Shown in pieces: positions 4,751 through 57,954 of a stretch of 64,000 nucleotides of DNA. A program made the position numbers and the translations under genes. The notes under the pieces are model-generated. The model was not told where the DNA came from. It worked only from the letters and a program-made list of their open reading frames with translations, and did no database searches. Each line of letters starts with the position of its first letter. Position 1 is the stretch's first letter. Source of the stretch: Umbilicaria muhlenbergii. Taxonomy: Eukaryota; Ascomycota; Lecanoromycetes; Umbilicariales; Umbilicariaceae. The DNA lies in contig KK106981.1 in assembly GCA_000611775.1 (NCBI GenBank), positions 2,727,211 through 2,791,210 of the forward strand. Reading direction: 5' to 3'.

Positions 4751-4779
4751 AGTATGCATAGCATGCATAATATGCATAA
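4751..4779. repeat. ATGCAT palindrome cluster
   Basis: Four TATGCAT/GCATGCAT words follow one another within about 30 bp (AGTATGCATAGCATGCATAA, then TATGCATAAA). This makes a short self-complementary cluster in the AT-rich spacer. No function is evident. Confidence 0.5.
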
Positions 4780-5051
4780 AAGCAGCACGTCACAAAAAGC
4801 AGAAAACAGAAAACAGGAAAAACAGTGTAAAAACAATGCAAAAATCAGAGCAGAAAGAATAACAGAGACAGTAATAAAAAATTCTTATAAAAACAGTTCT
4901 TAAAAAAGTGTGAGAAGTTGTTTACTTTTTTAAATTATTAATTTAAAAACATGTATTTCTTAAATGTACACAGCACAAATATCTAAGCATTGCATTAATA
5001 TAATGTACTCAATAATGTCACAGAATAAACAACATTGTATTTTTTCTTCTT

Positions 5052-5124
5052 CCCCCTCCCCCCTTGTAGAAAAACATAAATACACATAAACATTGATAGA
5101 AAATCGGAATTTCATCATAATTGC
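5052..5124 (+). repeat. Left terminal inverted repeat of the pogo-type element
   Basis: Reverse complementation of 6873-6942 gives a near match: the C-run, a TGTAG/TGGTAG step, then ACAT-AATACACATAAACAT, GATAGAAAATC and GAATTTCATC followed by ATTG. About 65-70 bp align with a handful of transitions and one or two indels. This matched pair defines the transposon limits. Confidence 0.8.
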
Positions 5125-36645: not shown

Positions 36646-36807
36646 ATGGTTTTGATACTGAGTGACGATACTCGAGGTGTCATCGAAATTGCTCTATGCG
36701 GTGTCTTCCTTCTATTCTCTGCAATAGCTGTCGCTCTCAGAATATGGTCCAGGCGCATCAAGGGAAAGGTCTTGGTACTAAATGATTACATGATTCTGGT
36801 TGCTTTG
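36646..36807 (+). CDS. Rhodopsin-domain (SAT4/PTH11-like) membrane protein, exon 1
   Basis: First exon of a seven-helix fungal rhodopsin-domain integral membrane protein; exons 2-5 lie 20 kb away at 56804-57954. The 54 codons start MVLILSDDTRGVIEIALCGV and cover helix 1 plus the beginning of helix 2 (VLNDYMILVAL). The exon ends in phase 0 at a GTGCGA donor (36808). Only 35 bp of the intron remain before the Copia element begins. The encoded family is widespread in Pezizomycotina, and its members are mostly uncharacterised; some are candidate surface sensors. The exon is intact, and its composition shows no sign of the decay seen in the neighbouring element. Confidence 0.85.
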
Positions 36808-36842
36808 GTGCGAGACTGCGTTGTCCCCTCTAAATATCTAAA

Positions 36843-37062
36843 TAATGAATAGACGATGTATTGATGTACATCTATGTATCTAAGCACACCCTCTAGTAGT
36901 TGTAGCAGACATCATGCGACGTATGCTCAGACTACTCATGTTATAATAGCTCGCTAAGGCTAGTGTCTTGTGCGTACGTTAACTGCGTACGTGAGGTTCT
37001 CAGCCCTAATGCACTAACCCTAATTGCCTAATTGAGTACAGTAGTAGACACTTCATTCAACA
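36843..37062 (-). repeat. Copia 3' LTR (left copy)
   Basis: 220 bp, matching 56557-56776. Read on the minus strand it begins TGTTGAATG and ends ATTCATTA. The flanking CTAAA at 36838-36842 pairs with 56777-56781. Confidence 0.92.
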
Positions 37063-37508
37063 CTCCCCCTGCGTCTTTATTTTATCTCAATCAAACATTT
37101 AACTTCCTTCAGCTCTTTCCTTCTCAATGTGTTTAAGCTTTAATTGCTGTTGATGCTTCTTGAACAAATTTTTAGTTAATGTCTTGATTAAATCATCTGC
37201 TAACATGTCCTTCATAGTCACTCATTTGACAATGAGTTCTCCGTCGTTCATGAGAGACTGTATGTAGTGATGTTGTATGTTTATGTGTTTTGTATGACTG
37301 TGCTGCTCCGTGTTTTGAATCAGTCTGATGCTTGATTTATTGTCATCAAGGAGAGTGATATTCAGCTTCAGCTCATAAAGTTTTAACTCATTAATAAACC
37401 TTTGCATTCAAACTCCTTGTCTTGCCTCATGACTCAAAGTGATATACTCAGCCTCAGCAGTAGATGTAAACACTGTACACTGCTTCTTTAACATTCAGGC
37501 AGTGATGC

Positions 37509-37781
37509 TGTAAGAGGCTGATCTACAACGTGAGGTCATATAGGTGTTGAATGAGGTGTCATAAGCAATATAATCATGATAGAGTCAATGCAGTGATGAT
37601 ATGTGTTCTATTCAGTGAGAAGACTGATCACTGAGGAAGCAGGTTTCTGCACCTTCTTGTGAAGAGTTTTCACTTGATGTCAAGGCGCTAGGCGCTGAGT
37701 CATCATATTTAAGCTATAGTGTCGTACCATAGTGTCGTACTATAGTGTCATACTGTCATACTATATATGATGGCTCTGACA
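37509..37781 (-). repeat. Element A 3' LTR
   Basis: 273 bp, TGTAAGAGGC...CTGACA as printed on the plus strand, matching 42781-43053. It contains short tandem (C)TATAGTGTCGTAC-type words near its end. Preceded by GATGC. Confidence 0.9.
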
Positions 37782-38004
37782 CAGCATTCCTCTTCTCATG
37801 ATGCTGTCCCTGGTGCCAATTGACTCTGAATTCATAATCATAGACATCATCATGATAGTCTGATAAGTGGTTGATCATGTAGGGTGAATGTGTGAAACAG
37901 TGCTAAAGTAAAGCTGATCATCATAAGTTCAAAACACCTCTCCCTTGTGTTTCTTCTTCATCATCTCTCTTATGACATGTCATCATACTTTCTGATAAGT
38001 GCCT

Positions 38005-38320
38005 TGTAGGCCTGTAATGCCTTTGCATGAAGGACTTTCATGACTGCCTCTCTGTGAAGAACTTCTGTGAATGCCTCTCTGTGAAGAACTTTTATGAATG
38101 CCTTTCTGTGAAGAACTTTCATGACTGTCTCTCTATGAAGGACTTCTGAAGTGAAATAATCATCTTTGTGAGCTCCTGATAAGTGCCTTGTAGGCCTGTA
38201 ATGCCTTTGTGTGAAGAACTTTCATGAATGCTTCTCTGTGAAGGATTTCTGTGACTGCCTCCCTATGAAGAACTTCTGAAGTGAAATGATCACCTTTGTG
38301 AGCTTCTGATAAGTGCCTTG
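38005..38320 (-). repeat. 27-bp minisatellite and larger repeats in element A tail
   Basis: Units of about 27 bp (TGTGAAGAACTTCTGTGAAT and variants) occur about five times between 38025 and 38145 and again around 38205-38280. They sit inside a longer unit that starts CTGATAAGTGCCTTGTAGG at about 37999, 38170 and 38307. Confidence 0.85.
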
Positions 38321-38321
38321 T

Positions 38322-38805
38322 AGGCTTATAAGGCCTTAATAAAACCTGTACTGATGAGTCACCTTCCTTAATGAACTTGTCACTCTTGACCCTTGCTGTA
38401 GATACTTTATAAGGTCTCAATAAAACCTGTAAAACCTCTTAAGGAAAATCAGGAAAGAGTGTCCTTATGACATTAATTAAATCATGTTTGAACTGTTTGA
38501 ACTGTTCAAAACATTCAGATTGTTCAGCCTGTTTGAAATTATTCAGACTGTTTAAATGTAAGTAAGCTTATAATGCCTCAATAAAACCTGTACTGATGAG
38601 TCACCTTCCTTAATGAACTTGTTGCTCTTGACCCTTGCTGTAGATACCTTATAAGGCCTTGATAAAACCTGTAAAACCTCTTGAGAAAAATCAGGAAAGA
38701 GTGTTCTTATGACATTAACTAAATCATGTTTGAACCGTTTAAACTGTTTAAAATGTTCAGATTGTTCAGCCTGTTCAGAACTGTTCAGATTGTTTGAATG
38801 TAAAT
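38322..38805 (-). repeat. 242-bp tandem duplication in element A tail
   Basis: 38322-38563 and 38564-38805 start with AGGCTTATAAGGCC and AAGCTTATAATGCC and run in parallel through CTGTACTGATGAGTCACCTT, TAGATAC-TTATAAGG and a GTTCAGATTGTTCAGCCTG segment. Differences are mainly transitions. Confidence 0.85.
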
Positions 38806-38899
38806 CTGCCTTTTCTACTCCCCTTTCATTTTTGTTTAGTATGACAAAATGTCATAGTAATTGTTGTACTTTTGTTGTACTCATGTATATTCATTGTAT

Positions 38900-39800
38900 T
38901 AATATATTCATCATGATTTAAGTCCTGGACTGCTGATGTTTCTGTTGTACCACCAGCTTCAATATTTGTTGTACTGATATATATTCATCACGGCCTGCTT
39001 CTCAAGCATGTAGGTCATGAACTGCTGATATTTCAGCTGCACTGCTGACTTCATTTCATTGTATTGATATATTCATCACGGCTTGCTTCTTGAGCATGTA
39101 GGTCACGGACTGCTGATGTTTCAGTTGTATCATCAGCTTCAGTATGCATCATACTGATATATTCATTGTACTTGTATGTTCGTCACGGCTTGCTTCTTGA
39201 GCATGTAGGTCACGGACTGCTGATGTTTCAGCTGCGTCATCAGCTTCAGTATGCATTATACTGATATATTCATCATACTCATATGTTCATCATGACTTGC
39301 TTCTTGAGCATGTAGGTCATGAACTGCTGATGTTTCAGCTGTGCTGTCAGCTTCAGTATGCATCATACTGATATATTTGTTGTACTTATATGTTCATCAC
39401 GGCTTGCTTCTTGAGCATGTAGGTCACAGACTGCTGATGTTTCAGCTGTGTCATCAGCTTCAGTATGCATCATACTGGTATATTCATCATACTGGTATGT
39501 TTATTGTACTCATATGTTTGTTGTACTTGTATGTTCATCACGGCTTGCTTCTTGAGCATGTAGGTACTGACTGCTGATGTTTCAGTCATATCATCAGCTT
39601 CAGTATGCATCATACTGATATATTCATCATGATGTTCATCATATTGTATGTTCATCATACTTGTATGTTTATCATATTTGTATGTTCATCATGACTTGCT
39701 TCTTGAGCATGTAGGCACTGACTGCTGATGTTTCAGTCATATCATCAGCTTCAGTATGCATCATACTGATATATTTGTCACGGCTTGCTTTTAAAGCATG
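38900..39800 (-). repeat. Tandem repeat array (~105-bp units) in element A linker
   Basis: About eight units, marked by TGCTTCTTGAGCATGTAGG at roughly 38994, 39083, 39191, 39299, 39404, 39545, 39698 and 39785. Spacing varies from 87 to 153 bp because a short CATACTG-TATGTT word is itself repeated within units. On the minus strand each unit corresponds to a peptide of about 30 residues around TETSAV and HAQEAS. A second block of the same units lies at about 40190-40480. Confidence 0.9.
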
Positions 39801-40189
39801 TAAATTTCACATCACTGATGTTCTGATGAGATCACTGCATCATATTCATGTTTATCATCTCAGACTCAGTCAAGTTGTTTTTATTCTTAAGAGGGGTAGT
39901 TAATCCCTGTTGTACTCATCATATCAAACCGTCTTTCAACTGTTCAGTATGACTCATATGTTCAAGTTGTTTGATAAACATTCTTGTATAAGTTGTTATC
40001 TCCTCATCTAGGGGTGAGTGAGTAGACATGAGTTGAAGTGCTTCAACAGTGTCAGCAGAAGAGTATTATCCTTAATTTAAAGATTAAAGGAATGCAGCTT
40101 GCACTGTTGTTCATAATTACAGTGTCTGCTGTGTTATCCTTGATTGAGTGCTACTCAAGATCTGCATTCAGGCTCTCTTATTCAGTCAC

Positions 40190-40480
40190 AGCTTGTTTTT
40201 AAAGCATATAGGTCACAGACTGCTGATGTTTCAGTTGTATCATCAGCTTCAGTATGCATCATACTGATATAACATCATGGTTTGCTTCTTGAGCATATAA
40301 GTCATGAACTGCTGATGTTTCAGTCATATTATCAGCTTCAGTATGTATTATATTAATATATTCATCACGGCTTGCTTCTTGAGCATATAGGTCATGAACT
40401 GCTGGTGTTTCAGTTGTATTACTAACTTCAGTATGCATCATATTGATATATTCATCACAGTTTATATTCTGCATCACTGA
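40190..40480 (-). repeat. Second block of the element A linker repeat
   Basis: Three further units of 87-90 bp (landmarks near 40190, 40278 and 40368), separated from the main array by about 400 bp of single-copy linker that matches 52000-52320 of the longer element. Confidence 0.85.
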
Positions 40481-40674
40481 TGTTTCAATGAGACTGCTGT
40501 CTTCAGTGTTCATCATACTGATAGATTCATTATGACAGGTATGACATTCTTTTGTTGTAGCCTCTGTCATACTGAATAAATTCCTCACTGCTGATGTTTC
40601 AGTGATACTGTTGATTTCATTTTCATTACAGCTTGCTTCTTCTTGAGTTGATAAATTCCTCACTGCTGACGTTC

Positions 40675-41282
40675 TGATGAGATCGTCATCTTCAGTATTC
40701 ATCATATCAGTGATATTCATTATGACAGATATGACATTCTCTTGTCATAGCTCTCCCTTGACTTAAACTCATCTTTACTAAAGATCAAGATATTATTCAA
40801 GTAGATCATGCATATGATGTTTAAAAACTCATCAAGCGCTTTATTTATAAAGACTTGAAATGTAACAGGAGCATTCATGAGTCTGAAAGATATAATGAGA
40901 TATTTAAACAGCTTAAATCATGTTCAGAACACTGTCTTTCACTCATCTCTGCTTTTAATTCATATTTGATTATATGCATGATGAGACTGCCGTCTTCAGT
41001 ATTCATCATATCAGTGATATTCATTATGACAGATATGACATTCTCTTGTCATAGCTCTCCCTTGACTTAAACTCATCTTTACTAAAGATCAAGATATTAT
41101 TCAAGTAGATCATGCATATGATGTTTAAAAACTCATCAAGCGCTTTATTTATAAAGACTTGAAATGTAACAGGAGCATTCATGAGTCTGAAAGATATAAT
41201 GAGATATTTAAACAGCTTAAATCATGTTCAGAACACTGTCTTTCACTCATCTCTGCTTTTAATTCATATTTGATTATATGCA
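40675..41282 (-). repeat. Almost identical 304-bp tandem duplication in element A
   Basis: 40675-40978 and 40979-41282 are the same apart from a few bases in the first 15-20 positions (TGATGAGATCGTCATC against TGATGAGACTGCCGTC). The duplicated unit covers a reverse-transcriptase piece and the start of the linker. Confidence 0.93.
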
Positions 41283-42780
41283 TTCTTGCAGTTTAGCTTC
41301 ATGAACTTCTTGACTTCTTGAAGATGATTCAATATATACTCTTTGTCATATCACAATGAGTTCATTTATTCACATTAACTGTAATAATGACTGCTGTTGA
41401 TCATTCTGTCATACATTCATTCCTTCAATGACTGATGACTTTACACTTAATGCAGAGACCTGTTGATTTGCATGCATTTACTTCATTCCTTGAAATAAAG
41501 TCTTCTTGTCAGTGTGAAGAAGCTGCAAGTGTTTATGTCATCATTGCTGTAATTATTTCTTCAGTGATTAATAAGTGATTGAGATTCTGACTCTGATTGC
41601 AGTCACTTTTATGATAAAAACCTCATGAGTTGTTTCTGCTTTCATGATTGAATTGTTGAGAATGAGAGAGCTTTTCAGAGAAAAATTCTTTTCTGTCATA
41701 ATATGATGTTTATGTTGTATTTTTATTTATGTCATCAATTTTGTTTTCACAGTCCTTTTTAGTGTCTGAACAGCTTTGAAATGATTCATAATTAATGATG
41801 ATGTCAAGATGTGTTGATATTTCCTGCACTGACTGTCTTGCAACCTGCGTTGAATCTCAGCGTCATAGTTCAGTCAGGACATGATGTGAAAGTTTTAATC
41901 ATCAGTGATCTTGAATGAGCATCTCACTGATCTCTTTGTGTGAAGTTGAAAGGAAGCAGTAGAGTTCTGATAATTTATCATATCAGAAGATGATTGTATC
42001 ATGATTGTGAAGTTCAACTGCATTGAAAGTGATAATATTTCATTCATTTGTATCTTCACTGAAAGATAAGTTTTTCTTCAGCACCTTCAGGAAGTTGTTA
42101 TAAGTGACTTAAGTGTGATCATGCTGCTTCTTTTGCTTTCATCAGTCACTCATAACTGTTTTCTCAAGGTAGGTGCCTGCTCAGATGATGAAATCTCATT
42201 CAGTAAGAAATTACTCTGACATCAGTTCCTGATTCTGATTAATTTCATTCAAGTATTTTTAAAGTTTTCATTTCATGACTTTGATGCCTCCTGCATAAGA
42301 ATGAGGCTCTCATGACTTTATAAGGTGTTGAAAAGAGAGAGGTGTGATGTCTGTCATAACTTAATATCATAATTCATGTGATGAACTTGTGTCATTTCTT
42401 GAGTTTATTATAATTGAAGAATTTTCTTGTAAGTGTTGATTAAGCTTCTGAAGTTTTCTTTTATTGTCCTTAAACTCAATTTCTTGTCATACATGTCATA
42501 ATTGTAATCACTGACACTCAATGACTTCTTGATTGTGAGCAGTGACTGCCTCAAGATCATTAATGAAGTCATCAAGGTTGCCTGCATCAATATGTTCATC
42601 ATTGTCATTGATGATGTCAGAAGCAGGAGTGTTGACAGTTAATGATGTAAATCTGTTAATTGAAGGTCTTGATTTAACTTAATTGACTGTTTCACTGACC
42701 TGATGAGATTGAAGTGTTGATGTCATCATGTCTTATGCTTTTGACATGACCGTTCACCTGAAGGTACTGAGTAATCAGTA

Positions 42781-43053
42781 TGTAAGAGGCTGATCTATGA
42801 TATGAGGTCATATAGATGTTGAATGAAGTGTCATAAGCAATATAGTCATGATAGAGTCAATGCAGTGGTGATATGTGTTCTATTCAATGAGAAGACTGAT
42901 TACTGAAAAAGCAGATTTCTGCACCTTCTTGTGAAGAGTTTTCACTTGATGTCAAGGCGCTAGGCACTGAGTCATCATATTTAAATTATAGTGTTGTATC
43001 ATAATGTCATATTATAGTGTTGTACTGTCATACTATATATGATGGCCCTGACA
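42781..43053 (-). repeat. Element A 5' LTR
   Basis: 273 bp, the same ends as 37509-37781 and followed by GATGC. Equal lengths and intact target duplications show that this is one insertion event. Confidence 0.9.
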
Positions 43054-45613
43054 GATGCATTCATTTAACATGAAGATGTATCTCATAATTAATCTTCAGT
43101 TCATGATATCACCTGTGTAGTTGCTGTTCATATAATCATATATTGCTGTATTGAATTGTTTTATACAGATGAGTTTCTTGAATCTGTACATGAGCTTTAA
43201 CCTTATTGTTCTCTTTAAGTATCACATGACTCATTTCATCACCTTGATGTGACTGAGTCATGAATCTGAAATGTTTTAATTAAGGCAGTCAACAGTAAAA
43301 GTGATATCTGATCTGATCTCACAAGCAATGTACATGAGCTTGTCAACAATGCACTGTAAATTTTTCAGTTTCACTTCATCAGTGTCCTCTGATTCATTCA
43401 GAGTTATGAAAGATTCAAGCTTCATGAGCATCTCAACAGGTGAACAGTTCTTCATCTCTTCTTGCAGTAGTACTTCTTTTATGTATGAAGCTTGATTTAA
43501 AGTTAATGTGTGCTTATTTCAGTCCTGAACTATCTGCAGTTCAATGATTGTCTGTGTTTTTTCTAAATTAAACATTTTAAACATCTTGTTGAAGACCTGC
43601 TTCATATGATTAATGTTCTTCATAGAAACACTGACAATAAGTAAATCATTCACATATACATTTATTAATGTAAGGCTATGACGGTCCTTTTGAATCAGAA
43701 TGCTTGAGTTCACATTTAATGTGTAAAACCTCTTCTTTAACATCAGGTCAGTCAACTTCTTATGTTATAATCATGCAGACTGCTTCAGATCATATAATTT
43801 CTTCATAATTTAATATATCATCTTAATTTCAGATTATTCTTGTACAGTGACTTCTTCTGAAATGTGCATATAAATATTCTCCTCCTCATGTTTCAGTTCA
43901 CTGCTCAGGTATGCTGCTTTGACATTCATTTAATATAACTTCATGTCATATGATGCAATCATGATGAGAAACATCCTCAATGACTTTTTATGAACAGTAG
44001 ATGTGAACATCTCTTGATAATTCATTTCATAAATTTGTGAAAATTCCTGAGTCATAAGTTTAATCTTGAATCATGTTATTCTTTCTTTCTCATCATATTT
44101 AATCTTAAAAACTCACTTGCACTCAACAGGTCTTCTACTCTGTGATAATGATTTAATGATTCATACAGTGTATGACTTCAAGTTCAGTAATTCTTCCTTA
44201 ATGACTTCTCTTCATTACTTTTCATAAACTGAGTCTCATACTGCTTCTTCATATGAATGTGATTTAATAACTTTCAACTGATTATTCTTTTTCTGATCTC
44301 TTTCATTTTAATTCTTGATGACATTCTTCTTTTAATCTCTTTCATCTTCACTCTTGACAGCATTTTTTTCAGTTGCTCACTGTGCATTTGCATCCTTCAA
44401 TCATGCCTCAAAGATGTCAATTATCAGAGCACTTGCACTGTATAAAGTTTGTCTCTCAGAGCACACTCTCATATGAAGCTTCTTAAGAGTGAATAAATTT
44501 AATGTCACAACATCTGCCTGTGATTTAACTGATTGCTTTAACCTCATCATTATGCAATCTTTCATAAATTCATCAGTGACTGATGAGATAACTCATCATG
44601 TATTGATTATACCTGTTGATGACTCAACTGAAACAGAGTTCTTTTCACTTAAACATCTTTTTTTATAAGGTGATGTTGACATGTCCTCCTCAACCTCTTT
44701 AGAAAATTGTGATTGATTGTTGTGATTCATATGAGGATATGATGTAATGTCATCATTATAATCAATGTTTATCCTCACTGAATGATTTCATTTTTAAAGG
44801 GTGTCAGGGTTTACCTTATCAGTGATTTTCATACAGGATGATAATGAAAGTGATTTGCCTGTTAATAAGTTTAATTCTTTGATAAACTCATCAATAGTAT
44901 ATGCTGAGACAATGTGAATAAAATTGATTTAAATGCTTCACACTTTCACTTGCTTATTAATATCAGTGTACTCAATTAATATTCTCTTTCATGTATAATT
45001 TAAATCTGACTTTATCCTCTTTTCTTTTAATATGTATACATATGAAACACTACTAAAGATTTGTATGTGATTAATATTTAAAATGAATTCAGTTCAGCCT
45101 TCTTCTGAAGTCACTGTTTATGCATTCATGAGTAAGTGATTCTGAACATAGTTCATGATATTTATAACTTCAGCTCAGAAATGATTAAACAGTTTACTGT
45201 TCAATAACATGACATCTTTCATCATATGAAGTGTACATTAACATCATTCTGATATAAAGTTGTGTTCTGATGTGTACAGTATTGAATATTTCAGAGTGAT
45301 GTCATGATTTGTGCAGAAATTTTTTATAACTTAACTTATGAACTCTTCTCCTCTGTCAATGCACAAGTGAGTGAGCTTTATTTCAGCTTTTTTCTCAATC
45401 AGCTTCAATCATTTCTTAAATCACTCAAAGTATTAATCCTTGCTCTTTAAAAACATGATTCAAGACTTTTAAGTGAAGTCATTCATTAAGATGACTGTGT
45501 TCAAACTATCATTAAAGAATAATGAATCATGTGAGCTTTAAAGATCTGAGTGTACTCACTTCAGCTTCTTGATGATAAGTTTCATGAGTTCATGATGAAT
45601 GACTCTTGCATCA

Positions 45614-46559
45614 GCAATTTAGCAAGTTAGCTCTGAGTTAATTTTTAGCACTTTGAGCGCTCTGAGCTTCTGATCTCATGTCTCAGCTAACAGCCGCTCT
45701 TAGCATCCTCTGAGCGCTTTGAGCTCAACCTTAAATCTTGAGCAGAACATCAAAATTTTGTGATAAAAAAACAATTATTAAAACAATTGTTTAAACAAGT
45801 ACACACACAGTGTTATAATAACAGTAAAACTTATAATAAGTAAACTTTTGCTAAAATTCACTTTTCTGCAATAAAAAATCATGATTTGTTGAGTCTGAAA
45901 GCACTGTATAAGTGTTGAGTTCTGAATATTTAAAGAACTTCAAGATTTTCATCACTTAAAAATTTACACACTTTAATAACTTTTGCAACTCAACAGATAT
46001 GAAGAAACTTTCAATGCATAAATTATAAAAAACAGTATTATCTATTAATGTTAAATTAAAAGTTTCTTCATAACTGCTGTTATTGTTAAATTATATTTAA
46101 TTCAAGTTTGCAATAGTGAAAAATCTTTCAAAAAAAAGTCACATACTTTGAATAACTATTGCGCTTTTATACTTATAATATAACTTTCAGGTTATAAGTT
46201 GTAGAGAATAAGCTGTTTAAGAGTTTTCTGATACAAAGTTTCTTTTTATGTGTTGTTGGTGTTGAGTTATTCAAAAAGTCATTAAAAATCTGTTTATTAA
46301 TGTTGTAATTTTCATCACTGAAAGTTTGAAATCAATATAACTTTTTAACAACAACAGTTATAAAAAAACTTTAAGTTATAAAACAGTTTAATAGCTTCTT
46401 CTCTACAACTTATAAACTAAAAGTTATTATTATTCATGAAGGTATAATAGTTATTTAAAGTGTAAGATTTGTATGAGCTCATTTACTGCTCAGAGAGTGC
46501 TCTGAGCGCATAAAGTACTATTAACTAAAATCTTATTTTTGAGCGGGCTGTCAAGTTGC
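45614..46559. mobile_element. Non-coding terminal-inverted-repeat element inside Copia integrase
   Basis: About 945 bp interrupting the Copia integrase region. Both ends, read inward, begin GCAA-TT-GCA-like, followed by a GCTC block, a TTAAT...CTTT stretch and GCGCTC-GAGC, which makes an imperfect inverted repeat of about 65 bp. Inner arms around 46135-46280 and 46320-46470 are also inverted copies of each other, and a third diverged copy lies near 45970-46060. No coding capacity. This is probably a small non-autonomous DNA element or foldback element; a target duplication is not clear (possibly a 4-5-bp TGCAA/CGCAA-type word), so family and exact ends are open. Confidence 0.55.
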
Positions 46560-47618
46560 GGATGCTTGTCTGCTTGCTGATCACACAAGACTTGCATATT
46601 TCAGGAACTGCTTCATACAGAATGTTGATAAAAACATCAGATGTTAAGATGTCATTAATGTTCCCTGATTACTCATTATTGAAGATAGATAAGGCAGTTG
46701 ACTCAGCAAGTATAATGTCTTCAATTCTTAACTCAGTGATGATCTTATTAACTTGCTTGATTCATATGAGACCTGCATGAGTTAGGCGTCAATGATATAA
46801 GTTCAGTTTGAGGATTAAACTGCATTTATATGTAACTCTCCCTCTGACAGCTAAGCTCACTTCAGTCTGTATGATATTTAAAACATAAAGATTTTCAACT
46901 CTTAAAGCTTTCTCTATAAGTGTGTTGTTGCATTTAAAAATCATTTCAATTTCATTATCATGATAGATGATTTCACTTCAACTGAGTTGTCTCAAAGACA
47001 AAAGATTTGTGTCACACTGAGGAACATAAACAACATCTTTAATCTGCATCAGCTTATTAATTGATGTTCACAGTTGAATGATGTTTTTTTCAGTTGTTGT
47101 TATTGTTCCTCTGTTAGCAATGCTGAAAGTTTAGTGATGAGGTTTCATGTGAGTAAACAGATGTTGCTGATTTGTGACATGTGAAGACACTTCAGAGTTA
47201 ATATATTAATCATATGAGTTGACCCTGAAGCTTGTGAGCATGTCAAGTTGTTCATTTTCAGTTGATTCCTCATCACTGTCCTCATTGCTGTTATACTCAG
47301 TCATTACTGCTGCTCAGTGTTTTAACTGCTTGTTAAATTCATGACTGTTGTTAGCTGCTTTCTGCCTTTCATACAGTTTATTGTTCTTCTCATATGATCT
47401 TTTATTTTCATCACTTCTTCTTATCCTGCAGTCTTTGGCAAAGTGTTCAAGTTTGTCACAGTTATGACAGTCAACTTCACTCATAAGCCTTCATTGATTT
47501 CATATAAACAGGATTGTGTCTTTCTTCTGATTTACTTCAAGGTCTGACTTGATATGAGCTTCTTCAGAGGTCAGAATTTACTGTGTGTCATTCAACATGA
47601 TTTCACTTTGATTCAAAA

Positions 47619-47898
47619 TGTTAGAGCCATCATATAATAGTATGACAGTATGACAAGTACAACACTATAGTACAACACTATAGTATGACATTATATAAAC
47701 ATGATGACTCAGTGTTTAACGCCTTGACATCAAGTAAAAACTTTTCACAAGAAGGTTCAGAAACCTGCTTCCTCAGTGATCAATTTTATCACTGAATAAA
47801 ATATGTATAATCACTGCATTGACTTCATCATGACTATATTGCTTACAACACTTCATTCAACACTTATATGACCTCACATCATAGATCAGCCTCTTACA
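47619..47898 (+). repeat. Element B 5' LTR
   Basis: 280 bp beginning TGTTAGAGCC and ending CTCTTACA, matching 55621-55900 and, in reverse complement, the element A LTRs. Preceded by CAAAA. Confidence 0.9.
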
Positions 47899-50800
47899 TA
47901 CTGATCACTCAGTACCTTCAGGTGAATGGTCATGTCAAAAGCATAAAACATGATGACATCAACACTTCAATCTCATTAGGTTAATGAAACAATCAACAAT
48001 CAAGCTGAATCAGGACCTTCAATTAACAGGTTCACATTATCAACTGTTAACATCTCTGCCTCTGACATCATTAATGACAATGATGAACATATTGATGCAG
48101 ATAACCCTGATGACTTTATTAAAGATCTTGAGACAGTCACTGCTCACAATCAGGAGGTCATTGAGTGTCAGTGATTACAATTATGACATGTAAGACAAGA
48201 AATTGAGTTTAAAGACAATAAAAAAGAACTTCAAGAGCTTAATCAACATCTGAAAGAAAATCCTTCAGTTATGACAAACTCAGGAAATGATGCAGGTTCA
48301 TTACATGAATTATGACATCAAGTTATGACAGACATCACACCTCCTCCTTTTCAACACCTTGTAAAGTCATGAGAGCCTTGTCTTTATGCAGGAGGCATTA
48401 AAGTCATTAAATGAAAACTTCAAGAATACTTGAATGAAATTAATCAGAGTCAAAAGCTGATGTCAGAGCAATTTTCTACTGAATGAAATTTCATCATCTG
48501 AGCAGGCACCTACTTAGAGAAAATCATCATGAGTGACTGATGAAAGCAGAAAGAGCAGTATGATCACACTTAAATCACTTATAACAACTTTCTGAAAATG
48601 CTGAAGAAAAACTTATCCTCTGATGAAGACATGAATGAATGAAATATCATCACCTTCAATGCAGTTGAACTCTGCAGCAATGATATAATCATCTTTTAAT
48701 ATAATAAATTATCAGAACTCTACTGCTTTCTTTCAACTTCACATAAGGAAATCAGTGAGATACTCATTTAAAATCACTGATGATCAAGGCTTCCTCATCA
48801 TGTCTTGACTGAATTATGATGTTGAGATCTGACGCAGGTTGCAAGACAGTCAGTGCAGGAAATCTCAACACATCTTGATGTCATCATTGATTATGAATCA
48901 TTCTGAAGTCACTCAGACACTAAAAAGGATCATTAAAACAAAACTGACAACAACAACAAAAGTATGACAAAGATATCATACTACAACAGAAAAGACTTCT
49001 TCACTGAATAATAAATCTCTCACCCTCAACAATTCAACTGTGAAAGAGAAAACAATTCATGAGGTTTCTATCAAGAAAGTAATCATGAGCAAAGCTGAAA
49101 TTTAAATTACATACCAGTTGCAGAGAAAGTAATTATGACAATAACATAAATATTCACAAAACCCTCATGCTGACAAGAAGACTTTATTTCAAAGAATGAA
49201 GTAAATGCATGAAAGGCAGCAGACCTCTGTATTAAGTGTGAAATCATCAGTCATTGAACAAATGAATGTATGATGAGATGATCAACAGTAGTCACTACTG
49301 CAGTTGATGTGAATAAATGATTCACAGTCAACCTTCAGCTCATCTTCTTACTTATCATTAATGATATCTCACATCTGATATCAAGACAGTTAAAGGTGAA
49401 TTTTCATACAACAAGAAGTGATCTGAAGAAAAAATACTCATATATTATCAACAACAGCAGTCAAGGCAATATTATCACATGAAGTGTTGTCAATGAGCTG
49501 TCTTTACAAACTGAATCCTACAGAGCTCAAGTTAATGCATGAGGTAATGTGATTGACTTATCAGAGTTCATCATACTGACAATTACAGTGTATGGCATTA
49601 ACAGTTAATTTTACTGCTATAACAGCTGTTTTCTTGTCACATAAGACAACACATCAGCTTCTTTCATCCTCAGGTTATCATTTCTAGTCAATGCAAACCT
49701 GAATCATGAATACAACATGAGGAAATTCCTATGAAAAAAGGTGAAGCATATCACAGCACACTGAGTATTCACTGTCAGTGAAAAGAAAGTGCTGAAGAAC
49801 ATTCTACATATGAATAATCTTTTCATTATGAAACACTTCATAGGACCGTCAGACTTAATAATTAATATAAAAAAATATACTCTTCAGATGAACTCATTAC
49901 AGTATAACAGAAGTAGTGATGTGTACAACACATTATCTTCTGAATATCATGACTTCACAGACATATTTCAAGCAGCTGAGAAGCAGTCTCTGCCTGAGAG
50001 AGATTCACATGATCATGTCATTGACTTGAAATCAGGACAGCAATCTTCATTTAAAAAGTTATACTTGATGTTCTTAGCTGAGCTTGATGTACTGAAGGTA
50101 TATCTAGATGACATCATGAAGGTAAGCATAATCTGTAAATTAATATTACCTGCAGCTTCACCTGTTATGTTTGTATTAAAATCAGACAGCAGCTTATGAT
50201 TAGTCATTGATTATAAGCACTTGAACAATATTATTATTAAGAATCATTACTCACTATCACTTATATCAGACATGTTGAATCATTTTCAAGGAGTTAAGAA
50301 GTTCATGAAGCTAAACTGCAAGAATGCATATAATCAAATATGAATTAAGGGCAGAGATGAGTGAAAAACAGTGTTTTGACATGATTCAAGCTGTTTAAAT
50401 ATCTCATCATGTCATTCAGTCTTATGAATGCCCCTGCTATGTTTCAAGCCTTCATTGATAAAGTGCTTGATGAGTTTTTAAACATCACATGCATGATCTA
50501 CTTGAATGATATCTTGATCTTTAGCAAAGATGAGTTTAAGCATGAAGAGCATGTACAACAAGTATTAAATGCATTATGATGTCATGATCTTCATCTTAAG
50601 ATCAGTAAGTGTTTATTTAATGCAATGAAAGTGAACTTCCTAGGATTCAAAATCAACATAAAAGGCATATATATGAACTCAGAGAGAATTTAAGCTGTCA
50701 AAGAATGACTGCCTCTGAAGAACATTCATGAATTGCAGATTTTTTAAGCTTCATAAACTTCTTCTGAAGGTTTATAAGAGATTATTCATGAATTACAGCA

Positions 50801-51675
50801 TCACTGTTAAATCTCTTGAAAACAGGAAAGAATAAAAAGAAGATTAAAAATACATCACTCTTTCCTTTTTAATCTCAACAGACTGTTATTAAAAGAAAGC
50901 AGAACAACTTGACCTCATCATGAAGATTTAATACAAAGTATTCAGCATGCAGCCTGCAAGTCAGAGGAAAGTTATAACAAGAAAACATCATACCTGTCTC
51001 TTTTTCACTTTCAGGAGTCACATTGAAAGTGTTTAAAACTCTGAAGAAGACTTTCATGAGTGCTTCATTACTACACTACTTTAATGAAAATAAACTCATG
51101 AGGGTTGAAATGAACACCTCTGAATTCACAATTGATGAAATCTTGATGCAATGCTTCAAGGTCAACAGTCAATTGCATTGATTATCAATTATTTACTACA
51201 GCAAGAAGCTGCTAAATACTGAGATCTGATATGATACAGATGAGCAAGAGCTCCTTGTCATCATAAAAGTCATGCATCATTGATGACACTACTGTCAGGG
51301 TGCTAAATATTAAATTGTTGTATTGATTAATCATGCAAACCTCATTTGATTCATGACTACTTTAAACCTCACATGAAGGCAGCTTAAATAAGCTGAAAAG
51401 CTTGCTGAATACAACTTCAAAGTCACATATTAAGAAGGCAAGAAGAACTCTGCTGATGATTTATCAAGACAGCTTGATTATGAACTGCTGAAGACTGTCA
51501 GTACCTCAACTGCTGCTGAAATAATGTGACAGTCCTTTCATTTAGGAAGCAAGGATTATAAGTCAGTGCAGAAGAAATTATACATGCTTGTCACAATGAT
51601 GCTGCAGTCAAGACACTCAGTATGACAGGAGTTATGACAAGAGAACATCATATCTGTCACAATAAATATTATCAG

Positions 51676-51985
51676 TATGATGAACACTGAAGATGATGAC
51701 ATGACTGAAACATCAGCAGTACATAACCTGCATGCTCAAGAAGCAAGCTGTAATGAACTGCAGTCAAGATGCTCAATACAACAGAAGTTACAACAAAAGA
51801 ATGTCATATCTGTCACAACAAATACTACTGATACAATGAATACTGAAGATGACAGTCTCATCAGAACATCAGCAGTGTGAAACTTATTTACTCAAGAAGC
51901 AAGCTGTGTCATGTCAGAAGAAATCAGAGACATCATTAAAACACACACTGTGCAGCATCTATCTGCTCAAGAAGCAAGTTATTAC
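51676..51985 (+). repeat. Few-copy peptide repeat in element B linker
   Basis: Three or four units of about 80-100 bp, with landmarks ACTGAAACATCAGCAGTA and CTCAAGAAGCAAG, lying between the RNase H and integrase parts. They are the low-copy counterpart of the array at 38900-39800. Confidence 0.8.
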
Positions 51986-53811
51986 TCAGTTGAAGAGCTT
52001 AAATATGCAGAGTCTCAGCAGCACTCAATCAAGGATAGTTCAATAAACACTGCAGTTATGAACAGTGACACAAGTCACATTTTTATTAATCTTCAAATTG
52101 AGGATAACACTTCTGCTGACACTGTTAAAGCACTTCAACTCATGTCTACTCACTCATTAATAAGTGAGGAGATAACAGCTTATATAAGAATGTTTATTAA
52201 ACAACTTGAATATGTGATTCATACTGAGCAGTTGAAAGATGGTTTGATATGATGAGTACAACAGGGATTAATTACCCCTCTTGAGAATAAAAACAACTTG
52301 ACTGAGTTTAAGATGATAAACATGAATATAAACATGAACTCAGAGATGATCATGACATCAGAGATGCAGTCAAATATGACATTTATACTGTCAGATGTAC
52401 AAAAATGTTGGCAGGAAATTAAAGATGTCATATATTATGATGATAAAATTTATGTTTCACAGAACTCTGCCCTCTGCAATGCAGTGATCAGTCAATTTCA
52501 TGATGATGTCTTTGCAGGTCATTTCAAGAAGTCAAGAATTATAAAGTTGATGCAGTGATCTTATAATTGATCTGATGCTGTCAGAGATGTATGATGTTAC
52601 TGTCATGACTGTGTTGAATGTCAAAAGGTAAAGCCAGCTCATCACAAATCATACAAGTTATTGAACTCATTATCAGTCTCAGAAGTGTCATCACATACAG
52701 TGATAATGAACTTCATTACAGACCTGTCACTGAGCAGCACATATAAAAGTATGATATGAAATTTAATCCTCATCATAGTTGATAAGTTGATTAAAATGAT
52801 TCATTATATTTCAGTACAGAAGACAATGTCAGTTGCTGACTTCATTGAAGTGTTTATTCAGGACATAATTAAGCATCATGATGTGTCAAAAGTTTTAATC
52901 ACAGACAGAGATAAGTTGTTTATGTTAAAGCAGTGAATCAGCTTCTGCTTTCATATGCAGTGTTATCATAATATGTCAACAGCTTTTCACCTGCAAACTG
53001 ATGATCAAACTGAGAGGCAGAATCAGTCCCTGAAGATGTATTTACACATATTCATTAATGAGCAGTAAGAGGACTGAGTTAAGCTCTTATTCTGCATGAA
53101 GTTTTCATACAACAACTTCATACATGCTGTTATGAGAAAGAGCCCCTTTTAGCTTAACTTAAAATGAGACCCTCAGATGAGCTTAAGTAAGCTGTTTATA
53201 CAGCACTCACATAAACAAATAAAACTTTATGCAGATGCACAGCAGCTTCAAGATCAAATTGCAACAACTTAAAAGCAGCTATGATAAGTTAACAAGATGT
53301 ATGCAAATTATTATAATCAACACTGAACAGAGATAACATTTAAAGAAGGTGATTTAATACTGATTAATGAAAAAAATGTGTCAGTGAACAAGCAGATGAA
53401 GAAACTGCATTGAAAAAAGCTCAGCTCATTCATGATACAACATGTGATAAGTCAGTTATTGTATGAACTTGACCTCTCAGAGGATCAAAATATTTATAAT
53501 GTATTCAATGTTGCTTTATTGAAGTCATTTTAAGACACACATCATGTGTTCTCTGCATTGACAGGAAAAGACCTACTACTCAACTGAGATGATGAGTGAG
53601 AAGTTGAGGCAATTGTGAATAATCATGTTCATGACAGCAGGCTTCAATACCTCATTAAATGAAAGCTGACAAATCAAGTGTGAGATGACACATGAAAGTC
53701 AGCACACTTTATTCACAATATAAAGACAAAATATGAAAATTTCATGCTGACAACTCTGATAAACTGAAATCTGAGTGAGCTGTACAACATGACCCTTCAA
53801 GGTCAATTGAG

Positions 53812-53901
53812 AAGCTGTCACAAAAGTCATAAGTCTTAAAAAAGCTGTCACAAAAGTCATGAACCTTAAGAAAGCTGTCACAAAAGTCATGAGTTTTAAG
53901 A
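53812..53901 (+). repeat. Three 30-bp tandem repeats in element B
   Basis: AAGCTGTCACAAAAGTCAT starts at 53812, 53842 and 53872, each followed by an (A/G)A-C/TCTTAA(G/A)A spacer. The period of 30 keeps frame. It lies just after the chromodomain-like region. Confidence 0.9.
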
Positions 53902-55620
53902 ATTGAAAACTTTGTCAGCTTTGTTAATTTAATCTTTTATAACAGAGTCTGTGCTCTACAACAAGAATACAACAGGAGTTACAACATTATAATGTTATAA
54001 CAGGATCTGTAATAAGATTACTGCATGAACTACATTATAACAGACATGTCACATTGCAGAGAACATTTAAGCACAGAAGCATTTCATTTCAAATCTGAAG
54101 ATTAAAATGAACTTGAGGTCAACATCTTGCATTTAATCCTTCATCAACACTGCATCAAGTCACTTTTATTTATTTATTTATCTTCTGTCATCTTAAATTC
54201 TTCTTCACTGTTATTTGATGAAGCCTCTGATCTCATCTTCTTAATGCATCAGTGCTCACAGAGTTCAACATACTCTTGATGATGATGAAATTAATGAGTG
54301 TTGAGAACATAAAAAGCATGAGCAGTGCTCTTCAGCAAGACAGCAAGAGCTTGAATGAGCTTCTTAAGATTATTAAATTAACATTAATCACCTCATTGTG
54401 AATGTCATGAGACTCATGTTGAGGAGCAGCTGCAGGAGACATAAAGAATGCTGATAATAATTAATAAAAGATGACAGCATGAGGATCTGATGATTAATCA
54501 TTAAACACTATGATTAATTAACAATGCAAAAGTATGATAATTAATACAACATTTTTTCATTTTAAACAAAACAAAAAAAGATTAAAGAAGACAGACTTAC
54601 AGTGTGCTGTCACTCCTCTGATCATCATAAACACGTGTGTGCAGGACAACAACATCAGAGCTTTTAAAAATTGAGGCAGTGATGATCAGAGACTCTGTCA
54701 TGCATTGCTCATGAGGATTGCAGAGAGATATGTAACATGTGCAGGCTCTCCTGTCTGACACAAAGCAGTGATCAACTTCAGCTCTTATACAAGAGTCACA
54801 GTGAGCAGTACCTGACAACATGTGACTGAGGTTCTCTCAAATCACATGCTCATGATGATGAGTCTGCTGCATGTGAGCTGGCAGTGAGGTATCATCATGA
54901 CATCACACAGAGCAAGACTCCTCATTAGAGATGTCATCTGAAGGTAGATGTTAAGTTCTTTTCAGATGTTGAACAGATTATTTTTCTTCTCTGCTTCTTC
55001 ATCTCTTTCTGAAGGTGTCAATCATCACAGTTTCATTCACTGACTCTGACTCAGAGCTCTTCTCATCACATTGAGCCTGAAGATCAACAGGCTTTCCTGA
55101 TGAAGACAGGTCTTCACTGTTGTTCATGATCATGAGTTCAATCATTTAAATATTGATTGACTATATATCATGTTAGCATTCATACATGTATGACAGGAAG
55201 TATGATATTACAAGAATGTTGAGCTGTGAGCTGCAAGCTTCATGATGCTCCCTTCATGAGGTGAACACCTCTGCAATGAAGATGACATCATGAAGTCATT
55301 AAGTCACTTAATGAGCTGTGAAAAAGCTGTGAGATGTACAACAACATGTCATAAGACAAACAACTAGACAAATGATGAAGAATAAGCACAAAGGGAAGGA
55401 TGTTTTGAACTTATGATAAACATGATCTTGATGTTTATGTTATGAAGAAGAACTTACTGCCAGGTGTGATATCATCACAATTAAGTGAGAGCACATGATC
55501 AGCCTTATTTTAATGTAGTTTCATGCAACCACCCTACAACCTCAACTGTTATGACATCATAATGAGGTTTATGAGCATTCAGTTGGCCCTGAGGACGGCG
55601 TTATGAGAAGGGAAATGCTG

Positions 55621-55900
55621 TGTCAGGGTCATCATATAATAATATGACAGTACAACAAGTACAACACTATAGTACAACACTATAGTATGACATTATATAA
55701 ACATGATGACTCAACACCTAGCACCTTGACATCAAGTGAAAACTCTTCACAAGGAAGTTCAGAAACCTGCTTCCTCAGTGATCAGTTTTGCCACTGAATA
55801 AAATATGTATAATCACTGCATTGACTTCATCATGACTATATTGCCTATGATACCTCATTCAACACTTATATGACCTCACGTCATAGATCAGCCTCTTACA
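55621..55900 (+). repeat. Element B 3' LTR
   Basis: 280 bp beginning TGTCAGGGTC and ending CTCTTACA, followed by CAAAA. The purine-rich GAGAAGGGAAATGC just before it is a plausible polypurine tract and matches the same position in element A. Confidence 0.9.
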
Positions 55901-56556
55901 CAAAAGGTGATTCTTACAGGTGCTATATTCCTCTGAAAGACCTTCAAGAATTATTATCAACATGATGTCACTTCAGATATCTCATACAGATGTGTTGAAT
56001 GTGAAAGTGACTTTAATCTTCTTTATGAGGCTTGTGACTTCTTTAAAATGTGTGTTGATGAATTTTTCATGTCCTTGAGTTTTGAATTTGAATGAGTGTG
56101 TTAACAGGGATTGAAGGTCAGTGTAAATGACTTCTTGATCAACCTGAGAACATGCTTTCTTGAGTTTGTCTCATATCTCCTTTGAATCATTCATATCCTT
56201 CACATTTTTGAATAAATCATCATTCAATTCACTCTTGATGATTCTTGCAGCTTCAGCAGACTCCTTCTTGAAGACAGTGATTTAAGCTGAGTCTGTCAAA
56301 CTCATATGAATTTCAGAGACAATATCTCAGTATCTCTTCTCTACTAATATCAACTCTGTCATGTTGAATCATCTTGATCAGTTTTCAACCCCCTTAAGCT
56401 TCTCTTCTCATTGAATCATGTCATAGTCGTCATTAGGCATGTTGAGTGTGTGGGTGTCATAACTGAAGGTTCATACAAAGAGTTATGTGAGGTGGTTTGA
56501 TTGCTGTTTTTGTGTGTTGTTCAGATGTTGTTCAGGCGCTTTCTGAGCTCATAACC

Positions 56557-56776
56557 TAATGAATAAATGATGTATTGATGTACATCTATGTATCTAAGCA
56601 CACCTTCTAGTAGTTGTAGCAGACATCATGCAACATATGCTCAGACTACTCATGCTATAGTAGCTCACTAAGGCTAGTGCCTTGTGCATACGCTAACTGC
56701 GTACGCGAGGTTCTCAGCCCTAATGCACTAACCCTAATTGCCTAATTGAGTACAGTAGTAGACGCTCCATTCAACA
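56557..56776 (-). repeat. Copia 5' LTR (right copy)
   Basis: 220 bp, the same length as the left copy. It is followed on the right by the second target duplication CTAAA and then by the remainder of the host intron. On its inner side lies the initiator-tRNA-type primer-binding site. Confidence 0.92.
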
Positions 56777-56803
56777 CTAAATGTATAAGATTGACATCCT
56801 CAG

Positions 56804-57954
56804 TTTCTTACGAGTGCATTTTCTGCCCTACTGATCGCCTGTATGTCCATCCACATTTACATCTTAAAGATGCCTTTCTAATCCCTGTAGCTGCCGCTGC
56901 AGCGGGATCGGGTGAGCACACCAGTGCTCTCTCTCCCAGCCAAGTTATCCTGTTCTCAAAGGTGAATGAACGGCTACACTAGCTCGTCCTTTGAAGTAAT
57001 CACGCTAACGAGTCCAGATGTCCGTGGTCGTACAAATCGAGTGGTGCCTTGCCAATTCCGCTGTTAAGATTTCTATACTTGACCTCTACCTGCGTACTTT
57101 TCCCGTCCGCAAGTTCCGCATCGTTACATATGTTATGATGGCATTCACGATGTTCTACATCCTAGTCATCGTGTTGGAAACTGTTCTTCTCTGCCACCCG
57201 TTTGCCTACAACTGGGACAAAAGCATCAAGGGTGGCTCCTGCGCCGACCTAAGATCCGCGTGCCTGAGCGCTGGGATTCTGAACCTGCTCATTGATGTGG
57301 CTATTGTCAGTCTGCCCATGCCCATGCTATGGGGTCTTCAACTACCATCTGCGAAGAAGGCCGCCATTTGTGGTATTTTCGGGATTGGTTACATGTAAGT
57401 CGATACATTCCATTCATCCTGACATACATCAGAGTTGAGAGTTCGGATGTTTTTATCTGGTTCTGTCTCTTGTACTCTCCCTCTGCCGGCGTCTAGCTCA
57501 ATGGTTTTGCATTCATAGCATCTGTGTCATTACCATACTCCGCCTCATTGCAATCCTGCACCTCGACTACTCGGACATCACCTTTAATGCTGCCCCCGCT
57601 GGCTACTGGAGTATCCTTGAGCCCACTCTGGGCATTCTCAACGCCTGCCTCCCCGTTATGCAACCTGTCCTTCACAAGCTTTTTGGCTCCCGCGCCCTCA
57701 GCTACACCAGCGACCCTAAAAACTCCGATAACAGGCGGCACTGGCTCAGCGGTAGCACGTTCTCGAAAAAACGCCCCGTCGATGACTCGCAGCTTAGTCG
57801 CTTTAAAAGGCTAACTGATGTGGAGGGATATCCGCTTAAAAATGTGACGGGCACAGAGACTTGCGTTACAGTGTCTAGGGGGAAATCCGAGGAGGACGGA
57901 GAGGTTATCATGATTAAGACAGATTGGAATGTTCATAGTAATACAGTTGCCTAG
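56804..57954 (+). CDS. Rhodopsin-domain (SAT4/PTH11-like) membrane protein, exons 2-5
   Basis: Continuation of the gene that starts at 36646. Exons 56804-56840, 56891-56961, 57018-57394 and 57519-57954 (introns 50, 56 and 124 bp) join in phase with exon 1, giving 360 residues in total. They encode the rest of helix 2 (FLTSAFSALLIAS) and SALSPSQVILFSK. Next comes the family signature around helix 3 (IEWCLANSAVKISILDLYLR), then helices 4-7 (VTYVMMAFTMFYILVIV, LLIDVAIVSLPMPMLWGL, ICVITILRLIAIL, WSILEPTLGILNACLPVMQP). A hydrophilic cytosolic tail ends in SNTVA. Acceptor CAG at 56801-56803 and the branch-like ATTGAC survive right of the Copia element. All frames are open, so the gene is structurally whole apart from a first intron of about 20 kb. 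Confidence 0.88.

What the first reader, a model, noticed from the sequence alone, without database searches (positions are those of the whole stretch)
36808..56803. A 57-bp host intron carrying a 19.9-kb nested retrotransposon block, with all host exons intact
Exon 1 (36646-36807) and exons 2-5 (56804-57954) of a rhodopsin-domain gene join in phase into 360 residues with seven helices. Removing the Copia element and one target duplication leaves an intron of ordinary size, with donor GTGCGA, a branch-like ATTGAC and acceptor CAG all preserved. The element is thoroughly decayed, yet the exons have no stops and normal composition. So either the gene still splices a fungal giant intron, or the insertion and the decay are recent, or the exons escaped decay by sharp edge control.
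Basis: partly seen in the sequence, partly recalled or inferred. Interest (0 to 1): 0.82.

Follow-up and report, generated by a model that had tools for sequence, protein, structure and literature searches.

The report
Retrotransposon nest inside a fungal intron
A short intron of an intact-looking fungal membrane-protein gene has been blown up to 20,000 bases by three nested jumping elements; the coding parts look healthy mainly because mutation of the repeats fades out at the element's edges, and the element itself brings in a splice signal that probably cuts the message short.

Summary
Exon 1 (36646-36807) and exons 2-5 (56804-57954) join in phase into 360 residues matching the whole Pfam fungal rhodopsin domain at 197.6 bits. 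Sixteen of 29 paralogues examined have an intron at exactly this codon and phase, 15 of 50-72 nt; without insert and one duplication ours is 57 nt. The block is one antisense Copia element (duplication CTAAA) carrying two complete LTR elements of another family in opposite orientations, each with a 5-base duplication.

The 'healthy exons in decayed DNA' puzzle largely resolves. CpG is nearly absent inside (observed/expected 0.03-0.15), near normal in the gene (0.81) and recovers within the outer LTRs. Three LTR pairs (773 nt) differ by 64 transitions, 0 transversions: repeat-targeted mutation. By the outer LTRs alone, neutral exons would have gained at most about 0.5-1 stop, so open exons do not show a working gene.

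New here: the antisense LTR carries a strong 3' splice site in 8 of 8 copies, 234 nt from the weak host donor and followed at once by an in-frame stop. I predict mostly truncated transcripts; no RNA data were available.

The parts
36646..36807 (+). exon 1 of the fungal-rhodopsin-domain gene (codons 1-54, ends in phase 0)
   Evidence: joins in frame with exons 2-5; PF20684 match starts at residue 31 of the joined protein
36808..56803 (+). intron 1 as it stands, 19,996 nt; 57 nt without the insert and one duplication copy
   Evidence: same codon and phase in 16 of 29 paralogues
36838..36842 (.). target-site duplication CTAAA, left copy
36843..37062 (-). left LTR of Copia element A (its 3' LTR, since A lies antisense)
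   Evidence: 220 nt, 14 transitions and 0 transversions against the right LTR; 8 copies found in the genome, the window's two included
37002..37041 (+). strong 3' splice-site-like sequence carried by the LTR on the host gene's strand; next codons in frame with exon 1 are TAG TAG
   Evidence: score 15.5, above 96% of 84 paralogue acceptors; in 8 of 8 LTR copies; 9 of 1000 shuffled LTRs reach it
37063..37503 (-). internal part of A next to its 3' LTR (polypurine-like stretch and RNase H end, by eye only)
   Evidence: sequence read directly; no Pfam match in the two fragments scanned
37509..43053 (-). guest element B, 5,545 nt with 273-nt LTRs, duplication GATGC at 37504-37508 and 43054-43058; carries minisatellites; coding strand inferred from B'
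   Evidence: LTR pair 24 transitions, 0 transversions; inverted match to B'; tandem repeats; no Pfam match in its 11 fragments scanned
43059..47613 (-). middle of Copia element A: reverse transcriptase remains at 43429-44154 and a gag-type zinc knuckle at 47317-47490
   Evidence: PF07727 in the genome search with 4 TGA and 4 TAA; one fragment E=9.3e-9; zf-CCHC E=3.7e-5
47619..55900 (+). guest element B', 8,282 nt with 280-nt LTRs, duplication CAAAA at 47614-47618 and 55901-55905; Ty3/Gypsy-type remains
   Evidence: RVT_1 at 50385-50576 above cut-off, RT_RNaseH_2 at 50978-51178 just below, Integrase_H2C2 at 52256-52555 below cut-off; LTR pair 26 transitions, 0 transversions
55906..56556 (-). 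internal part of A next to its 5' LTR
   Evidence: lies between B' and the right LTR; no Pfam match in three fragments
56557..56776 (-). right LTR of A (its 5' LTR); also holds the splice-site-like sequence, ending at 56755
56777..56781 (.). target-site duplication CTAAA, right copy
56782..56803 (+). rest of the host intron: TTGAC branch-like site and CAG acceptor
   Evidence: score 11.35, 40th percentile of paralogue acceptors
56804..56840 (+). exon 2
56841..56890 (+). intron 2, 50 nt, codon 66 phase 1 (also in paralogues)
56891..56961 (+). exon 3
56962..57017 (+). intron 3, 56 nt, codon 90 phase 0 (also in paralogues)
57018..57394 (+). exon 4
57395..57518 (+). intron 4, 124 nt, codon 215 phase 2 (also in paralogues)
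57519..57954 (+). exon 5 with stop codon

Best explanation
A Copia retrotransposon jumped, antisense, into a normal 57-nt first intron of a single-copy fungal rhodopsin-domain gene. It landed between donor and branch site, so all splice sites survived. Two LTR elements of a second family, at least one of Ty3/Gypsy type, then jumped into it in opposite orientations (shown). The nest was hit by a repeat-targeted C-to-T hypermutation that strips CpG (shown as composition and LTR-pair changes; the enzyme is inferred). It fades within the outer LTRs, so the single-copy exons were spared and look healthy without needing selection (inferred). The allele today is most likely a strong hypomorph or null: the weak host donor is captured by the strong acceptor that the LTR carries on the host strand, which puts a stop right after codon 54, or the transcript ends in the presumably silenced block (inferred; no RNA seen). 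A little full-length mRNA across the 20-kb intron is possible.
For: Gene model and domain. Intron at this codon and phase in 16 of 29 paralogues. Nested LTRs with three exact 5-base duplications. CpG observed/expected 0.03 (B'), 0.08 (A interior), 0.15 (B) against 0.81 (CDS), 0.84 (upstream), 0.61 (just 3' of the gene) and 0.83-0.91 (three gene-rich stretches). Edge: 200-nt steps fall from 0.83 (exon 1) and 0.91 (left LTR) to 0.19 just inside, and rise from 0.25 to 0.48 (right LTR), 0.57 and 1.31 on the other side. LTR pairs: 64 transitions, 0 transversions in 773 nt. From the outer pair alone (0 of 220) the bound allows 0.5-1.0 new stops in 1083 nt, so a stop-free CDS has a chance of 0.37-0.61 without selection even at the bound. 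Family-conserved residues: 3 of 38 deviate, within the range of 29 paralogues (0.03-0.35). LTR acceptor 15.5, above 96% of 84 paralogue acceptors, in 8 of 8 LTR copies, followed by TAG TAG in frame. Host donor: 10.7% of paralogue donors score as low or lower.
Against: No RNA, methylation or strain data. The outer LTR pair bounds the insertion only loosely: up to 10-20 Myr with the slowest recalled rate, 0.6-1.3 Myr with the fastest. C-side contexts of LTR-pair differences are mixed (CpG in only 14 of 64), so the CpG preference rests on depletion. The CDS is slightly shifted the decay way: CpG 0.81 against a paralogue mean of 0.95 (sd 0.12), TpA/ApT 0.76 against 0.63 (sd 0.11), both within range. 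Splice scores come from 84 predicted, unverified introns of one family; a high score does not prove use. The host acceptor is ordinary, so splicing to it is not excluded. Antisense orientation and intact splice sites are what a tolerated intronic insertion would show.
Confidence: 0.62

Rival explanations
1. Functional giant intron: the 20-kb block is transcribed through and spliced out efficiently, by 36807/56804 joining or stepwise, and the exons are kept by selection.
For: All host splice sites preserved, element antisense, exons open, family residues intact; the outer LTR pair leaves room for an age at which selection would matter. Plants do express genes with heterochromatic introns with the help of IBM2 (PMC7145194, passages read).
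Against: Weak donor and a stronger nearby acceptor with an immediate stop. Of 1247 AG sites in the intron 98, the host's own included, score at least as well as the host acceptor, and 59 reach the paralogue median. Fungal mean intron lengths called long in one survey are 426 and 469 bp (PMC8476143, passages read). Exon integrity does not need selection.
Confidence: 0.15
2. Old dead gene: the insertion is several million years old, the gene has been dead since, and the exons are open by chance.
For: Inner sequence is heavily mutated; the outer LTR bound allows it with slow rates.
Against: 0 transversions in the outer pair and in 773 nt of all three pairs; no stop, no frameshift, 3 of 38 conserved-site changes.
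Confidence: 0.1
3. Split expression: exons 2-5 are read from a promoter inside the block as a shorter protein.
For: The downstream part is open; its first in-frame Met is residue 91.
Against: The adjacent LTR points away from exon 2, since A is antisense; a start at Met91 would lose the first hydrophobic segments.
Confidence: 0.08
4. Assembly artefact that joins unrelated ends.
For: None found.
Against: Matched LTRs, three exact 5-base duplications, in-phase exons.
Confidence: 0.02

Closest known systems
Plant genes with heterochromatic, transposon-bearing introns (IBM2-dependent; PMC7145194)
   Same: Transposons enlarge an intron; premature transcript ends are the expected failure
   Different: Those are expressed with a dedicated machinery; here a fungus, no RNA or chromatin evidence, and 57 nt grew to 19,996 nt
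RIP and RIP-like C-to-T hypermutation of repeats in fungi (CpG-biased case: Tricholoma matsutake, PMC6980582)
   Same: C-to-T changes confined to repeats; CpG loss as in that report
   Different: T. matsutake is a mushroom of the Agaricomycotina; here interior TpA/ApT is 0.61-0.70, not the raised value recalled for classical CpA-type RIP (the LTRs alone show 1.35-1.5); enzyme untested
Nested LTR retrotransposons (Copia host, Ty3/Gypsy-type guest)
   Same: LTRs, 5-base duplications, domains, guests inside an older element
   Different: The whole nest sits inside one ordinary intron with both splice sites kept
LTR-derived cryptic splice sites that truncate host genes (recalled as a kind)
   Same: Acceptor supplied by an LTR, early stop
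   Different: Predicted from sequence only

Membership tests
Fungal rhodopsin domain proteins (PF20684) | Match over the whole profile above the curated cut-off | tested here: met
   197.6 bits against 27; 1-236 of 237
Fungal rhodopsin domain proteins (PF20684) | Shared intron positions with family members in the genome | tested here: met
   codon.phase 54.0, 66.1, 90.0 and 215.2 recur among 29 paralogues
Fungal rhodopsin domain proteins (PF20684) | Seven membrane helices | tested here: inconclusive
   hydropathy scan gave 8 windows, two pairs overlapping, so 6 separate peaks
Copia LTR retrotransposon (element A) | Copia-type reverse transcriptase | tested here: met
   PF07727 at window 43429-44154, - strand
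Copia LTR retrotransposon (element A) | LTR pair and 5-base duplication | tested here: met
   5-base duplications also flank three solo LTRs (L033, L038, L039; read)
Copia LTR retrotransposon (element A) | Integrase between gag and reverse transcriptase | tested here: inconclusive
   gag-type zinc knuckle and reverse transcriptase found in the right order, but no integrase match in A among the 56 of 101 fragments scanned
Ty3/Gypsy LTR retrotransposon (B' and B) | RVT_1, RNase H, integrase in that order | tested here: inconclusive
   B': order right, RVT_1 above cut-off, RNase H 28.9 against 29.8 and integrase zinc finger 17.8 against 25.5 below. B: no match in 11 fragments; linked to B' by sequence
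Classical RIP | CpA to TpA preference, raised TpA/ApT | tested here: not met
   interior TpA/ApT 0.61-0.70 and CpG o/e 0.03-0.15; the two short outer LTRs alone have TpA/ApT 1.35 and 1.5
Functional spliced giant intron | Spliced transcripts | not testable with these tools
   no RNA data

The most novel reading that the evidence does not exclude
A fungus whose introns are otherwise short nevertheless transcribes through and removes a 20-kb silenced repeat nest from a working gene, with a boundary inside the LTRs that keeps hypermutation off exons only 35 and 27 nt away.
Probability: 0.13. Interest if true: 0.78.

Novelty: new member of a known kind. Interest (0 to 1): 0.42.

Why it matters
It is a clean natural experiment: one ordinary intron whose empty size can be inferred, a well-ordered nest of insertions, and exons 35 and 27 nt from the outer LTRs. 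It makes two questions directly testable: how sharply fungal repeat-directed mutation stops at a repeat edge, and whether fungal splicing can cross a 20-kb intron. It also warns that open exons beside decayed repeats are not evidence of a working gene, because the decay is aimed at repeats.

Tried and rejected
Organism: not identified. Guess dropped.

Survey for other giant introns by split Pfam matches: p450 (106 matches; 92 of 146 candidates scored) and PF20684 (78 matches), read by eye, show no consecutive same-strand matches of one gene split by more than 1.5 kb. MFS scored only 9 of 221 candidates and was useless. The survey is blind to short first exons and would have missed exon 1 of this very gene, so it gives no frequency. 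Of 29 paralogues, 26 have their N-terminal part in reach of introns up to 300 nt; for L022 and L023 N-terminal pieces were then found within about 0.4 kb upstream. L025 stays open: part of its upstream stretch reads N and was left alone.

dN/dS: not run; no orthologue is at hand and paralogues are at most about 38% identical. Structure prediction: not run; the spliced protein is not a direct translation of the window. Literature: ten searches; no title or abstract start listed there was about a fungal gene with a transposon-made intron of this size. Most listed papers were not opened (three were), three searches returned only the best of longer lists, and the library is open-access, so this is no proof of absence. 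Recalled, not from a call: mutation rates (1e-9 to 1.6e-8 per site per year), the 4.5% stop share, the TpA/ApT reading for classical RIP, branch-site and polypurine motifs.

Mended on checking: I first bounded the age with all three LTR pairs pooled. The guests are younger than A, so only the outer pair bounds the insertion; that bound is 3.5 times looser. I lowered the best explanation from 0.66 to 0.62, raised the giant-intron rival from 0.13 to 0.15, the old-dead-gene rival from 0.06 to 0.10 and the novel case from 0.11 to 0.13. Six transversions first seen in the B pair (of 298) came from alignment past the LTR end; trimmed there are 0 in 273.
Full report
What is there. The window lies in a 34.8-Mb fungal genome of 7 contigs (C1:2727211-2791210). 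Exon 1 (36646-36807) and exons 2-5 (56804-56840, 56891-56961, 57018-57394, 57519-57954) join without an internal stop into 360 residues. The product matches the whole Pfam fungal rhodopsin domain (PF20684) at 197.6 bits, E=3e-58. The DNA of exons 2-5 has one match in the genome, itself.

Is the first intron real? I aligned the 360-residue protein, which carries no intron information, to 29 paralogous loci of the same genome with an intron-aware alignment (introns up to 300 nt). These are the 30 loci returned for 78 PF20684 matches, less the window gene itself; matches without a locus were not examined. Sixteen of 29 have an intron at exactly codon 54, phase 0: fifteen of 50-72 nt and one of 183 nt. 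The two best-scoring paralogues (L027 and L020, 37-38% identity) have it, at 56 and 51 nt. The other three introns of the gene also recur at their exact codons. Taking out the insert and one CTAAA leaves 57 nt. So this is an ancestral intron of ordinary size.

Anatomy of the block. The outer LTRs (36843-37062, 56557-56776; 220 nt) are flanked by CTAAA on both sides. Eight LTR copies were found in the genome, these two included; three solo copies (L033, L038, L039) also show 5-base duplications (read). The element is antisense: a Copia reverse transcriptase lies on the minus strand at window 43429-44154 with 4 TGA and 4 TAA (one fragment E=9.3e-9), and a gag-type zinc knuckle on the same strand at 47317-47490. 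Inside are two further LTR elements of one family in opposite orientations: B, 37509-43053, duplication GATGC; and B', 47619-55900, duplication CAAAA. B' has RVT_1 remains above cut-off and RNase H just below on the plus strand and a weak integrase zinc finger, so it looks like Ty3/Gypsy. B is about 73-90% alike to B' over most of the parts that match, has no domain match in 11 fragments and is rich in minisatellites. Of 101 stop-to-stop fragments of 45 or more residues in the block, 56 were scanned; one further weak match, ThiS-like at E=0.0093, is probably chance. Without its guests A measures 6,097 nt.

The decay. CpG observed/expected is 0.08 in the interior of A, 0.15 in B and 0.03 in B', but 0.81 in the CDS, 0.84 upstream, 0.61 just 3' of the gene and 0.83-0.91 in three gene-rich stretches. 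CpA and TpG are in excess (1.5-1.65) and TpA/ApT is low (0.61-0.70), unlike classical RIP; the short outer LTRs alone show TpA/ApT 1.35-1.5. In 200-nt steps CpG falls from 0.91 in the left LTR to 0.19 just inside it. On the right it rises from 0.25 to 0.48 in the LTR, 0.57 across LTR end and exon 2, and 1.31 next; later steps over the gene range from 0.56 to 1.19, so the right edge is less crisp than the left. The three LTR pairs differ by 14, 24 and 26 transitions in 220, 273 and 280 nt, and by no transversion. Against a pure CpG story, only 14 of these 64 differences are at CpG by the C-carrying copy; other cytosines are hit as well. Genome-wide, 53 of 55 Copia reverse-transcriptase matches contain in-frame stops, so decay of such repeats is general here.

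What the open exons prove. The guests are younger than A, so only the outer LTR pair bounds A's insertion: 0 transversions in 220 nt, 95% upper bound 3/220. Under transversion shares of one third to two thirds (assumed) this allows 11-22 neutral substitutions in the 1083-nt CDS and 0.5-1.0 new stops; a stop-free CDS then has a chance of 0.37-0.61 with no selection at all, before counting indels. With recalled rates the bound is 10-20 Myr (slow) or 0.6-1.3 Myr (fast). Open exons therefore neither prove nor exclude selection. Of 38 family-conserved sites 3 deviate (0.08); the 29 paralogues range from 0.03 to 0.35. GC3 is 0.58 (paralogue mean 0.61); CpG (0.81 against mean 0.95, sd 0.12) and TpA/ApT (0.76 against 0.63, sd 0.11) lean slightly the decay way but stay within range. 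The gene looks sound; whether it works now cannot be read from the exons.

How it most likely behaves. Scored with matrices from 84 predicted paralogue introns, the host donor GTGCGA lies at the 11th percentile and the host acceptor at the 40th. On the host strand the LTR contains a CTAAC/CTAAT...TACAG acceptor that scores above 96% of paralogue acceptors. It is the best of 1247 AG sites in the intron, tied by its own second LTR copy. Nine of 1000 dinucleotide-shuffled LTRs reach it; 601 of 1000 reach the level of the host acceptor, so merely adequate acceptors are common. All 8 LTR copies found keep it. Using it from the host donor makes a 234-nt intron and puts TAG TAG directly after codon 54; retention of the intron gives 68 residues. 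I therefore expect truncated or prematurely ended transcripts and little full-length product. This is inference: there is no RNA evidence.

Comparison. In plants, genes with heterochromatic introns are transcribed with the help of IBM2, and its loss gives premature ends in the intron (PMC7145194, passages). For fungi, a survey describes mean intron lengths of 426 and 469 bp as long and finds Copia and Gypsy remnants in some introns it calls recently gained (PMC8476143, passages). CpG-biased C-to-T mutation of repeats, and silence of 83.2% of 702 genes surrounded by transposons, are reported for Tricholoma matsutake (PMC6980582, abstract and passages). Transposon insertion into an intron and nested LTR elements are known kinds; the size, the preserved splice sites and the LTR-borne acceptor make this a good example, not a new kind.

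Noticed in passing
window 36843-37062 and 56557-56776; L032-L039: The strand of this Copia LTR opposite to its coding strand carries a near-ideal 3' splice site, kept in 8 of 8 copies found, next to telomere-like CCCTAA words. Insertions in genes in this orientation would tend to trap splicing.
   Followed up: partly
window 1-6500: Second AT-rich block, GC down to 0.16 and CpG observed/expected 0.06; lower GC than the nest in the intron.
   Followed up: no
window 38028-41283: Element B holds several tandem repeats (periods 27, 88-107, 130, 151, 242, 304 among others) and a 161-residue open frame on the minus strand (40262-40744) in CpG-poor DNA; no Pfam match.
   Followed up: partly
window 46145-46461: A 317-nt imperfect palindrome (68% identity to its own reverse complement) in the middle of the Copia element.
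   Followed up: no
L036 (C3:15553-18769): Another LTR copy lies about 0.9 kb from a cytochrome P450 match (C3:18124-18423); not examined as a possible second insertion in or near a gene.
   Followed up: no
L033, L038, L039: Three solo LTRs of the family with 5-base duplications GGTAA, ATCAA and ATTTT (read): AT-rich targets like CTAAA.
   Followed up: partly
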